This document shows, in pieces, positions 3,528-31,381 of a stretch of 64,000 bases of DNA (its first letter is position 1; each line of letters begins with the position of its first letter). Under the pieces are notes generated by a model, which saw only the letters and a program-made list of their open reading frames with translations, made no database searches and had not been told where the DNA came from. The translations under genes and the position numbers were made by a program. The stretch comes from Tannerellaceae bacterium (lineage in GTDB: Bacteria > Bacteroidota > Bacteroidia > Bacteroidales > Tannerellaceae): the NCBI GenBank assembly GCA_031270665.1, contig JAISXD010000050.1:1-64000 (forward strand). The letters are read 5' to 3'.

Positions 3528-4118
3528 ATGCTTGTTGCCATTATAAAATATAATGCGGGGAATATTTATTCGGTTGATTATGCCTTGAAACGTTTGGGAA
3601 TCTCTCCTGTTGTTACGGCAGAGCCCGAAGTGTTGTTGAAGGCAGATAAAGTGATCTTTCCGGGGGTCGGCGAAGCCCGTACTACCATGAATTATCTGAA
3701 AGATACGAAATTGGATTTGTTGATCAGGGATTTACGACAGCCTGTTTTGGGTATTTGCTTAGGGATGCAGTTGATGTGTAAGTATTCCGAAGAAGGGGAT
3801 ACCGGATGCCTGAATATTTTTGATGTTGAAGTCAAACGTTTTATTCCCCAAAAACATGAAGAAAAAGTGCCTCATATGGGTTGGAATACATTATCAATTG
3901 TTGGAGAAGGGCTTTTTACTAAAGAACAGAATAAGCAGTTCGTTTATTTTGTGCATAGTTATTATGTGCCTATAAATAGCTGTACGGCTGCCGCTACGGA
4001 GTATATTTTACCCTTTAGCGCCGCGCTGCAAAAGGGCAATTATTATGCAACCCAGTTCCATCCAGAGAAGAGTGGAACGGTGGGTGAAAAGATATTAGAA
4101 ATTTTTTTAAGATTATAA
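3528..4118 (+). CDS. hisH: Imidazole glycerol phosphate synthase subunit HisH
   Basis: Class I glutamine amidotransferase motifs GICLGMQLM and QFHPEKSG; upstream of hisA/hisF. Confidence 0.95.
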   Translation: MLVAIIKYNAGNIYSVDYALKRLGISPVVTAEPEVLLKADKVIFPGVGEARTTMNYLKDTKLDLLIRDLRQPVLGICLGMQLMCKYSEEGDTGCLNIFDVEVKRFIPQKHEEKVPHMGWNTLSIVGEGLFTKEQNKQFVYFVHSYYVPINSCTAAATEYILPFSAALQKGNYYATQFHPEKSGTVGEKILEIFLRL

Positions 4119-4125
4119 CAGAGGT

Positions 4126-4860
4126 ATGATTGACCTGATCCCGGCTATAGATTTAATTGACGGAAAGTGCGTGAGGCTTACCCAAGGAGACTACAATACA
4201 AAGAAAGTGTATAATGGAAATCCTTTAGAGGTAGCCAAAATGTTTGAAGATTATGGTTTACGCCGGTTGCATGTAGTGGATTTAGACGGTGCCCGCAAAG
4301 GCTGTATCGTTAATTACCGTGTGCTGGAAAGAATCGCCGGACATACGTCGTTTATTATCGATTTTGGCGGAGGGCTTACGCGTGAAAGCGACTTGGAAAT
4401 AGCCTTTGAGAGCGGGGCTCAAATGGTGACAGGCGGCAGCATAGCCATAAAAGACCCTGAAATGTTCACTTCGTGGATAACTAAATATGGCAATCAAAAG
4501 ATCATTCTTGGAGCAGACGCCCGAAACAACAAAATAGCAGTAAGTGGCTGGGAAGAAACAACCGACGAAGAGATTGTTTCTTTTATACAGGCATATTATA
4601 ATAAAGGTATAACAAAAGTTATCAGTACCGATATTAGCCGTGACGGTATGCTGGAGGGGCCTGCTATTGATCTGTATAAGACAATAAAAGAGGCTTTACC
4701 CTGTTTGTATGTGATAGCAAGCGGCGGGGTAAGCTCGGTTGCGGATATTGAAAAGCTGGAAGAAGCGGGAATACCCGGCGTTATTTTTGGCAAGGCCATT
4801 TATGAAGGGCGTATTCAGTTAAAAGAACTGATACGGTTTACGGACAACTATGACGATTAA
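4126..4860 (+). CDS. hisA: Phosphoribosylformimino-5-aminoimidazole carboxamide ribotide isomerase
   Basis: [26 protein letters not shown]-barrel; his cluster context. Confidence 0.95.
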
Positions 4861-4864
4861 CAAT

Positions 4865-5620
4865 ATGTTGGCAAAAAGAATTATTCCCTGTTTAGATATA
4901 AAAGACGGAACGACGGTAAAGGGAATAAATTTTGTGAATTTCCGCGATGCGGGCGATCCGGTGGAATTAGGAGCCCACTATAGCCGTGAAGGCGCCGACG
5001 AACTGGTATATTTAGATATTACAGCTTCGCATGAAGGGCGCAAGACTTTTACGGAATTGGTGCGCAAGGTAGCCGCTTGTATAAATATCCCTTTTACAGT
5101 AGGAGGGGGAATTAATGAAATAAAAGACGTAGACCGTTTACTGAATGCCGGAGCCGACAAAGTATCGATTAATTCTGCCGCGCTCCGTAATCCCTCATTA
5201 GTAGAAGAAATTGCCAAAAACTTTGGAAGCCAGGTTTGCGTGGTGGCCATCGATGCCAATTACGAGAATAATAATTGGATATGTTATTTAAACGGAGGGC
5301 GTATTCCTACTGGTAAAAAACTGTATGATTGGGCTGTTGAAGCTGAAAATCTCGGAGCCGGCGAAATACTGTTTACAAGTATGACGCATGATGGCGTGAA
5401 GGAAGGGTATGCCAATGAAGCCTTGGCGGTATTGGCCGGTCAGTTGCACATACCTGTTATTGCTTCGGGCGGCGCCGGGGAAAAAGAACATTTCCGCGAT
5501 GCGTTTATAGCAGGAAAAGCAGACGCAGCTTTGGCAGCCAGCGTCTTTCATTTTGGAGAAATAGGGATAACAGGGTTGAAACAATATCTGTTAAAAGAAG
5601 GTGTTAGTGTACGAATATAA
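4865..5620 (+). CDS. hisF: Imidazole glycerol phosphate synthase subunit HisF
   Basis: [23 protein letters not shown]; start placed at 4865 rather than the upstream 4850 ATG. Confidence 0.95.
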
Positions 5621-5637
5621 AAAAGAAATTAAAATAG

Positions 5638-6234
5638 ATGAATTTAGACTTCGACAAGGCGGGAGGACTGATTCCTGCCATTATCCAGGATAATAAAACG
5701 AATAAAGTATTGATGCTGGGTTTTATGAATGAAGAAGCTTATCAACAGACAAAAGAAACCGGGAAAGTAACCTTTTTCAGCCGCACCAAAAACCGTTTGT
5801 GGACGAAAGGCGAAACAAGCGGAAACTTCTTATCAGTAAAACAAATACTGACAGACTGCGATAATGATACGTTGCTGATAAAAGCTGACCCGGCCGGCCC
5901 TGTTTGCCATACCGGAAATGATACCTGCTTCGGGGAACAAAACAGGGAAGATGTGATGTTTCTGAAATATCTTCAAAACTTTATAGAACAGCGCAGACAG
6001 GAAATGCCCGAAGGTTCGTATACTACTTCGTTATTTATAAAAGGAGTGAATCGTATGGCTCAAAAAGTGGGGGAAGAGGCTGTGGAGACGGTAATCGAAG
6101 CAACAAACGGTACGGAAGAAGGCTTTATTTATGAAGCTTCCGATATGATCTATCACCTGATTGTGCTGCTTACCAGTAAAGGGCTTCGCATAGAAGACCT
6201 GTTGCGTGAATTAATGAAAAGGCATAAAGAATAA
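5638..6234 (+). CDS. hisIE: Bifunctional phosphoribosyl-AMP cyclohydrolase/phosphoribosyl-ATP pyrophosphatase
   Basis: HisI part (TGKVTFFSRTKNRLWTKGETSGN; CHTGNDTCF) fused to HisE (KVGEEAVETVIEA). Confidence 0.95.
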   Translation: MNLDFDKAGGLIPAIIQDNKTNKVLMLGFMNEEAYQQTKETGKVTFFSRTKNRLWTKGETSGNFLSVKQILTDCDNDTLLIKADPAGPVCHTGNDTCFGEQNREDVMFLKYLQNFIEQRRQEMPEGSYTTSLFIKGVNRMAQKVGEEAVETVIEATNGTEEGFIYEASDMIYHLIVLLTSKGLRIEDLLRELMKRHKE

Positions 6235-29959: not shown

Positions 29960-30089
29960 TTGTTTAGCCTGATTACTTTACGATGCAAAGTAATAAACAT
30001 TACATGGATTACACAGAATTTTGCGGAACTATTTTTTTTATAATTTACCTGTTCTGTTATATTTTACGCAGCAACGTTTTGTACATCGA

Positions 30090-30292
30090 AGGTTCACGTG
30101 CCGGCGGGCGCCGGTTTTTATCCGAAACAGTCGTTGCGGCAGGAAGTATTACCGTTTCTGACTTGTCGGAAAGCCTCATCCGGATGGATTTGGGAAGTAT
30201 TGCGCAGCCCCGCGCAAGGGATTGCAGCGGAAAGCCCGGCCGCCGCACCCCCGGCGAGGGATGCGCCCATAGCCGGAGTTGCTCATTTTTTT
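30090..30292. other. GC-rich intergenic element with AGCCCCGCGCAAGGGATTGCAGCGGAAAGCCCGG segment and a terminator-like hairpin
   Basis: GC-rich block in an AT-rich intergenic region; hairpin CCGGC-GAGGGATGCGCCCATA-GCCGG at 30251-30276 with T7 at 30286-30292. Confidence 0.6.
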
Positions 30293-30322: not shown

Positions 30323-30352
30323 TTGGCGAAATAAATAATTAGTGTAACTTTG
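30323..30352 (+). promoter_or_regulatory. Candidate promoter of the his leader: TTGG (-33 like), 18 bp spacer, TAACTTTG (-7)
   Basis: TTGG 30323-30326; TAACTTTG 30345-30352; leader ATG at 30373. Confidence 0.6.
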
Positions 30353-30372: not shown

Positions 30373-30420
30373 ATGAAACAAAACAAGCTACATCATCATC
30401 ATTGCAACAACGGGCAGTAG
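30373..30420 (+). CDS. hisL: His operon leader peptide MKQNKLHHHHCNNGQ
   Basis: 15-codon ORF with four consecutive CAT codons directly upstream of a terminator and hisG. Confidence 0.9.
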   Translation: MKQNKLHHHHCNNGQ

Positions 30421-30499
30421 TTCGGTGGGCTGATGTGTATGTAGCATATATCAAATAGAAACAGAGAAAGGCTTGCCGTTTTACGGTGAGCCTTTTTTT
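30387..30499 (+). promoter_or_regulatory. Translation-coupled transcription attenuator of hisGDCB (pause hairpin, antiterminator, terminator)
   Basis: Pause hairpin 30387-30400/30432-30445; antiterminator 30423-30431/30470-30478; terminator stem 30467-30478/30484-30495. Confidence 0.85.
30467..30499 (+). terminator. Intrinsic terminator within the his attenuator
   Basis: AAAGGCTTGCCG-tttta-CGGTGAGCCTTT, 12 bp with two G-U pairs, then T-run. Confidence 0.92.
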
Positions 30500-30529: not shown

Positions 30530-31381
30530 ATGTTGCGAATTGCTGTACAATCAAAAGGACGTTTATACGACGAGACAATGCTCTTGCTCGAAGAAGCGGG
30601 GATTAAATTAAACCGGGGCAAACGTATCCTGCTTTTATCGGCCAAGGGATTTCCTGTTGAAGTTCTTTTCCTGCGCGATGATGATATTCCTCAATCGGTG
30701 GCAAACGGAGTAGCTGATGTGGGTATTGTGGGAGAAAACGAATATGTAGAAAAAGGGGCCGGAGCTAAATTAGTGAAACGGCTTGGGTTCAGTAAATGCC
30801 GTTTGTCGCTGGCCATTCCCAAAGATGAAGAATACGGGGGAATAGCATGGTTTGAAGGGAAAACAATCGCTACTTCCTATCCTGAAATACTGATCAATTA
30901 CCTCGGCAGGTGCCATGTAAAAGCAAACTTACATATTATCAGCGGTTCGGTAGAAATAGCGCCGGGTATCGGATTGGCGGATGCTATTTTCGATTTGGTC
31001 AGTTCCGGAAGTACATTAATCAGTAACCGCCTGAAAGAAGTAGAAGTAGTGATGAACAGCGAAGCTCTGCTGATAGCCAATAATGAACTTTCCGGCGAAA
31101 AACAGGCAATCCTGGATGAACTTCTTTTCCGTTTTGAAGCCATACAGGCTGCCGAAGGAAAAAAGTATGTGCTGCTTAACGCTCCGAAAGATAAACTGAA
31201 TGAGATTATTGAGATATTGCCCGGTATGAAAAGCCCTACCATAACTCCGTTGGCCGACGACAAATGGGTATCTGTACAGTCGGTTATTACGGAACAACAT
31301 TTCTGGGAGATTATCGGACGGTTAAAAGCATCGGGAGCTGAGGGTATATTAATTATTCCAATTGAAAAAATGATTGTATGA
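30530..31381 (+). CDS. hisG: ATP phosphoribosyltransferase
   Basis: MLRIAVQSKGRLYDETMLLLEEAGI; start corrected from 30473, which lies inside the terminator. Confidence 0.95.
   Translation: MLRIAVQSKGRLYDETMLLLEEAGIKLNRGKRILLLSAKGFPVEVLFLRDDDIPQSVANGVADVGIVGENEYVEKGAGAKLVKRLGFSKCRLSLAIPKDEEYGGIAWFEGKTIATSYPEILINYLGRCHVKANLHIISGSVEIAPGIGLADAIFDLVSSGSTLISNRLKEVEVVMNSEALLIANNELSGEKQAILDELLFRFEAIQAAEGKKYVLLNAPKDKLNEIIEILPGMKSPTITPLADDKWVSVQSVITEQHFWEIIGRLKASGAEGILIIPIEKMIV

What the first reader, a model, noticed from the sequence alone, without database searches (positions are those of the whole stretch)
30373..30499. Complete histidine attenuator upstream of hisGDCB in a Bacteroidetes genome
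Seen: ATG AAA CAA AAC AAG CTA CAT CAT CAT CAT TGC AAC AAC GGG CAG TAG encodes MKQNKLHHHHCNNGQ. The His codons overlap the 5' arm of a pause hairpin (GCTACATcatCATC 30387-30400 with GATGtgtATGTAGC 30432-30445). CGGTGGGCT (30423-30431) can pair with GGCTTGCCG (30470-30478) as antiterminator, which excludes the 12-bp terminator 30467-30495 followed by Ts. A -7 box TAACTTTG lies 20 bp before the leader ATG. Established: this is the classical his leader logic of enterobacteria. Inference: hisGDCB here is controlled by ribosome stalling at four His codons.
Basis: partly seen in the sequence, partly recalled or inferred. Interest (0 to 1): 0.75.

Follow-up and report, generated by a model that had tools for sequence, protein, structure and literature searches.

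The report
Histidine attenuator before hisGDCB
Just before a set of histidine-making genes in a gut Bacteroidota bacterium lies a tiny gene rich in histidine codons plus two competing RNA hairpins, a sensor that most likely switches the genes on when histidine runs short; the mechanism is textbook, but the same device turns out to be spread across most of the phylum with no entry in the public RNA-family library.

Summary
At 30373-30420 an ORF MKQNKLHHHHCNNGQ lies 110 nt before hisG (30530), with a 1:2 stem over the His codons, an antiterminator (30423-30431 with 30470-30478) and a 13-bp terminator with a U tail. hisG-D-C-B follow (NCBIfam). It is not chance: 58 of 80 Tannerellaceae-type hisG loci carry an ATG ORF with three or more consecutive His. 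Across the order Bacteroidales 48/69 hisG genes, in the rest of the class 49/63, and elsewhere in the phylum 18/46 have a His-rich leader ORF (reverse strand 1, 0, 0; shuffles, run for the order, 0). Of 123 such leaders 101 are followed by a strong terminator (shuffled 3). The terminator covaries; the antiterminator pairs in 99.6% of cells; a TAnnTTTG box precedes 48/51 leaders. Masking a ribosome on late His codons frees the antiterminator; masking at the stop blocks it. Best explanation: ribosome-mediated transcription attenuation by His-tRNA supply (0.93). Mechanism known, member new; no Rfam family covers it. Related leaders (Phe-pheA, Trp-trp, Ile-ilvE) turned up with the same model. One distant lineage has His leaders without a terminator, perhaps a Rho-type variant. 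No expression data exist here.

The parts
30323..30326 (+). weak -33 element (TTGG; TTTG in most relatives), 18 bp before the -7 box
   Evidence: relatives show TATTTG at the same distance; inference from the known Bacteroidetes promoter type
30345..30352 (+). -7 box TAACTTTG of the his promoter
   Evidence: TAnnTTTG at -45..-15 of the leader ATG in 48 of 51 relatives, 32 of them at exactly -28; 6% in shuffles
30373..30420 (+). leader peptide ORF MKQNKLHHHHCNNGQ*
   Evidence: His-rich ORF conserved at the same place before hisG
30391..30402 (+). four consecutive His codons (CAT x4), the sensing codons
   Evidence: position relative to arms tested
30387..30401 (+). segment 1: 5' arm of the pause/anti-antiterminator stem
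   Evidence: own arms pair better than arms swapped between species, 0 of 2000 permutations
30431..30445 (+). 3' arm of the pause stem
30411..30424 (+). small inner hairpin CGGGC-AGTA-GTTCG around the leader stop codon
   Evidence: the aligned helix (columns 53-73) is paired in 97.5% of cells of 53 relatives
30423..30431 (+). segment 2: antiterminator 5' arm CGGTGGGCT
   Evidence: almost invariant; pairs with segment 3 in 99.6% of cells, slid versions 30-52%
30467..30479 (+). segment 3: terminator 5' arm; 30470-30478 is also the antiterminator 3' arm
30483..30499 (+). segment 4: terminator 3' arm and U tail
   Evidence: 94.8% of cells paired, 25 cells changed on both sides
30530..31381 (+). 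hisG, ATP phosphoribosyltransferase (long form)
   Evidence: TIGR00070, TIGR03455
31378..32658 (+). hisD, histidinol dehydrogenase
   Evidence: TIGR00069
32655..33692 (+). hisC, histidinol-phosphate transaminase
   Evidence: TIGR01141
33689..34810 (+). hisB, bifunctional phosphatase/dehydratase
   Evidence: NF003937

Best explanation
This is a ribosome-mediated transcription attenuator that controls hisGDCB by the supply of charged histidyl-tRNA. Transcription starts about 7 nt after the TAACTTTG box and a ribosome starts the 15-codon leader peptide. If His-tRNA is plentiful the ribosome runs to the stop codon, 5 nt before segment 2, and covers it; segment 3 is then free to pair with segment 4 and RNA polymerase stops at the U tail near 30499. 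If His-tRNA is short the ribosome waits on the His codons, breaks the 1:2 stem but leaves segment 2 free; segment 2 pairs with segment 3, the terminator cannot form, and the operon is read. With no translation the 1:2 stem hides segment 2 and the terminator forms. Shown here: the parts, their conservation, their mutual exclusion and the geometry. Inferred: the transcription start, the stalling, the termination and the response to histidine.
For: Leader with His run before hisG in 58/80 close loci; His-rich leader in 48/69 Bacteroidales, 49/63 other Bacteroidia and 18/46 further phylum members, against 1, 0, 0 on the reverse strand, and 0 in shuffles for the Bacteroidales set. 101/123 of these leaders are followed by a terminator of -8 kcal/mol or better, shuffled 3/123. 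Terminator 94.8% paired with two-sided changes in 5 pairs; antiterminator 99.6% paired, slid controls 30-52%. 43 of 51 leaders end exactly 5 nt before segment 2. Mask folding at the decision point, mean antiterminator pairs out of 9: no ribosome 0.97, first His 6.8, last His 8.6, stop 0.0. Promoter box conserved. The downstream genes are hisG, D, C, B. The model built from these leaders also finds leaders with Phe codons before pheA, Trp codons before trp genes and Ile codons before ilvE, so the rule 'codon type follows gene function' holds.
Against: No expression data. The mask model is crude and static: in the window the first two His codons free the antiterminator only weakly (1.9 and 1.0 of 9; third and fourth 4.2 and 8.7), and most codons before the His run free it too, so specificity rests on the codon content. 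In the full-length transcript the terminator always wins at equilibrium, so the choice must be kinetic. The antiterminator itself shows no two-sided changes. Some relatives lack the leader altogether, among them several termite-gut Tannerella MAGs.
Confidence: 0.93

Rival explanations
1. The leader peptide regulates hisG mainly at translation or by mRNA stability; the terminator is incidental.
For: Two groups of phylum members have His leaders without a recognisable terminator.
Against: In the window and in 101 of 123 leaders a strong terminator lies between the leader and hisG, and segment 2 mimics its 3' arm. hisG starts 31 nt after the U tail, outside all the hairpins.
Confidence: 0.04
2. 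A trans-acting regulator or RNA ligand (riboswitch, T-box) controls the terminator and the His ORF is a by-product.
For: Terminator plus alternative hairpin is shared by riboswitches and T-boxes (general knowledge).
Against: No Rfam riboswitch or T-box reaches threshold; the His run is the most widely conserved feature while the RNA sequence around it changes between families.
Confidence: 0.02
3. Chance: a random short ORF with four CAT codons next to an ordinary terminator of an upstream gene.
For: CAT repeats and terminators occur by chance; the window scan finds other short ORFs with weak hairpins.
Against: Phylum-wide recurrence at the same place; the nearest upstream gene, rpiA, points away.
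Confidence: 0.005

Closest known systems
his operon leader of Escherichia coli / Salmonella (hisL; Rfam Histidine operon leader)
   Same: Leader peptide with a His run, pause stem over the His codons, mutually exclusive antiterminator and terminator, hisG first in the operon (known biology, from memory).
   Different: Different phylum, shorter run (4 against 7 His, from memory), Bacteroidetes promoter, no obvious Shine-Dalgarno, hisGDCB only; no match to the Rfam family even at E up to 5.
Bacteroid-trp (RF01692), Bacteroidete tryptophan leader
   Same: Same phylum and same layout; sub-threshold similarity 26.7 bits against a cut-off of 49; the model from our His leaders picks up Trp leaders before trp genes.
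   Different: Trp codons and trp genes; the window does not reach the family's threshold.
Thr_leader (RF00506), enterobacterial threonine operon leader
   Same: Sub-threshold hit of 29.7 bits over the whole model (cut-off 55), reflecting the shared ORF-antiterminator-terminator shape.
   Different: Thr/Ile codons, thr operon, other phylum.
5' element upstream of hisG in Flavobacterium psychrophilum (PMC9723704)
   Same: Structured 5' region before hisG in Flavobacteriaceae, and 'strong clues' for leader-peptide attenuation before amino-acid operons, from transcriptome data.
   Different: The passages of that paper read here give no His-leader anatomy and no survey; its supplement could not be read.

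Membership tests
Ribosome-mediated (classical) transcription attenuator, his type | Short leader ORF with a run of codons for the pathway's end product | tested here: met
   HHHH in a 15-codon ORF before hisG; conserved
Ribosome-mediated (classical) transcription attenuator, his type | Intrinsic terminator between leader and first structural gene | tested here: met
   13-bp stem plus U tail; 101/123 across the phylum against 3/123 shuffled
Ribosome-mediated (classical) transcription attenuator, his type | Antiterminator that excludes the terminator | tested here: met
   Segment 2:3 paired in 99.6% of cells of 53 sequences; weaker support in distant families: in 35 of 101 at most 2 of 50 shuffles pair as well
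Ribosome-mediated (classical) transcription attenuator, his type | 1:2 stem overlapping the regulatory codons that hides segment 2 | tested here: met
   MFE fold, partner-swap test, inner hairpin 97.5% paired
Ribosome-mediated (classical) transcription attenuator, his type | Ribosome at the leader stop covers segment 2 | tested here: met
   Stop 5 nt before segment 2 in 43 of 51 leaders
Ribosome-mediated (classical) transcription attenuator, his type | Read-through rises when charged tRNA-His falls | not testable with these tools
   Needs RNA or reporter data
Rfam Histidine operon leader family | Match to the covariance model above its gathering score | tested here: not met
   No hit at gathering, none at E up to 5 in 351 bases, none at E up to 0.01 in 11 related loci
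Bacteroid-trp (RF01692) | Match above gathering score; Trp codons; trp genes | tested here: not met
   26.7 bits against 49; His codons; his genes

The most novel reading that the evidence does not exclude
Leader-peptide attenuation of his (and of phe, trp and ilv) genes is a general, largely uncatalogued system of the phylum Bacteroidota, unrelated in sequence to the enterobacterial leaders, with at least one lineage (nine leaders, mostly or all of family f186) in which the His leader is kept but the terminator is replaced by an unstructured, C-rich and G-poor stretch that may work through Rho.
Probability: 0.35. Interest if true: 0.65.

Novelty: new member of a known kind. Interest (0 to 1): 0.45.

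Why it matters
It gives a control element for histidine synthesis in a phylum where this regulation is poorly described: a 2021 study of his genes in the superphylum discusses attenuation only for E. coli and Salmonella in the passages found here, and a 2010 survey of attenuators knew leader-peptide systems only in Proteobacteria and Actinobacteria besides its own new Firmicutes case. A sensor that needs a ribosome close behind RNA polymerase also predicts transcription-translation coupling in bacteria whose leader ORFs here start in an A-rich stretch without an obvious Shine-Dalgarno. Parabacteroides and Flavobacterium strains that can be grown carry such leaders or 5' elements, so it is directly testable.

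Tried and rejected
Rfam at gathering and at relaxed thresholds gave no family above cut-off. The simple terminator scan did not list this terminator, probably because its loop and stem limits do not fit it. Chance was rejected by reverse-strand and, for the Bacteroidales set, shuffle controls. Orientation of whole-genome loci was at first taken wrongly and redone. A second attenuator for the other his operon (hisH-A-F-IE, 3528-6234) was looked for and not found. Literature: no paper found in the library describes a Bacteroidota his leader peptide in detail; Lopatovskaya et al. 2010 (cited in PMC4833913) could cover some of it and was not available to read.

Full report
What is there. The window lies in contig 64 of a Tannerellaceae-type genome (58% complete, 91 contigs); its closest hisG relatives (96-92% identity) are Tannerellaceae MAGs. 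The four genes after it are hisG, hisD, hisC and hisB, overlapping head to tail, followed by glsA and glsB for glycine lipid.

More than chance. The 153-nt leader folds at -45.5 kcal/mol against -26.9 +/- 3.1 for shuffles. Of 80 hisG loci from close relatives, 58 have an ATG ORF with three or more consecutive His 140-240 nt before hisG. Some of the others have interrupted His runs (L052, L073, L074), one contig ends inside the leader (L048), and some, mainly termite-gut Tannerella MAGs, have no leader at all. Beyond the family, one genome per species was sampled: 48 of 69 hisG upstream regions of the order, 49 of 63 from the rest of the class and 18 of 46 from the rest of the phylum hold an ATG ORF of at most 50 codons with at least four His in eight residues; the reverse strand gives 1, 0 and 0, and dinucleotide shuffles of the order set 0. 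None of the 14 sampled members with HisG about 34% identical or less (L228-L241) has such a leader.

The RNA. In 53 aligned leaders the terminator is paired in 94.8% of cells with 25 two-sided changes. Segment 2 and segment 3 pair in 99.6% of cells, and only 30-52% when slid; the arm is so conserved that it cannot show two-sided changes. A small hairpin around the leader stop codon, which hides segment 2, is paired in 97.5% of cells. This hairpin probably explains why many leader peptides end in NGQ or NGR: the conservation is of RNA, not of peptide (inference). Arms of the pause stem pair better within than between species, 0 of 2000 permutations; relatedness inflates such tests. Across the phylum 101 of 123 His leaders have a terminator of -8 kcal/mol or better behind them, shuffled 3.

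How it works. Folding with a ribosome footprint masked, on the transcript as it is just before segment 4 is made, gives a mean of 0.97 antiterminator pairs without ribosome, 6.8 to 8.6 with the ribosome on His codons, and 0.0 at the stop codon. In the window itself the third and fourth His codons work better (4.2 and 8.7) than the first two (1.9 and 1.0). Once segment 4 is made the terminator is always more stable, so the decision must be made while the polymerase moves. This is the classical scheme. The promoter is of the Bacteroidetes type, TAnnTTTG in 48 of 51 relatives, mostly 28 nt before the leader ATG.

A family of sensors. A covariance model of the 53 leaders (R1) has one hit in this genome, the window itself, and hits in 66 of 100 genomes of the family and 44 of 148 of the order. 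Its weaker second hits are telling: MNRFSFTYYFYYFYFSRV before pheA (L279, L280), leaders with WW or WWW before trpB- or trpE-like genes (for example L282, L284, L286, L289, L290, L293-L298), two Ile-rich leaders in tandem before ilvE (L287), two His leaders in tandem before hisG (L288) and two Trp leaders in tandem (L295); four other hits are plain terminators (L281, L285, L291, L292). Except for hisG in L288, gene names here are read from the translated downstream ORFs by eye, not from a profile search. Of the Bacteroidota versions only the Trp one was met as an Rfam family (Bacteroid-trp).

Variants. In the lineage numbered f186, and possibly a neighbouring family, nine hisG genes have a His-rich leader, some starting with GTG, but no terminator; the stretch before hisG is C-rich and G-poor (C minus G 0.13 to 0.23; mean of 170 others 0.00, sd 0.08) and shows no consensus fold. 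That would fit Rho, but nothing tests it. Five members of f150 also lack a terminator.

Verdict. The mechanism is textbook, so the member is new but the kind is not. The wider result, that most Bacteroidia hisG genes sampled carry such a leader, is the more interesting part; priority for it could not be fully checked.

Noticed in passing
window 3528-6234: The second his operon (hisH-hisA-hisF-hisIE) of the same contig has a short 5' region with no leader ORF or terminator, so only hisGDCB is under attenuation.
   Followed up: partly
window 30056-30292: A 237-bp stretch, GC-rich in parts, lies just upstream of the his promoter and is missing at the same place in the closest relative L001; short pieces of it recur elsewhere in the genome. 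Looks like an inserted element.
   Followed up: partly
L279, L280: Phe/Tyr-rich leader MNRFSFTYYFYYFYFSRVKAGVCM with terminator before a pheA-like gene in Parabacteroides-type genomes.
   Followed up: partly
L287: Two Ile-rich leader ORFs in tandem, the first followed by a terminator-like hairpin, before an ilvE-like gene.
   Followed up: no
L288 and L295: Tandem attenuators: two His leaders before hisG (L288) and two Trp leaders before a trpE-like gene (L295).
   Followed up: no
L215-L219, L221-L224: His-rich leaders before hisG without an intrinsic terminator, followed by a C-rich, G-poor unstructured stretch; possible Rho-dependent version.
   Followed up: partly
L027, L058, L066, L071, L076, L078, L080: Close Tannerellaceae hisG genes without any His leader, some with a promoter-like box close to hisG, suggesting loss of the attenuator in some termite-gut lineages.
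   Followed up: no
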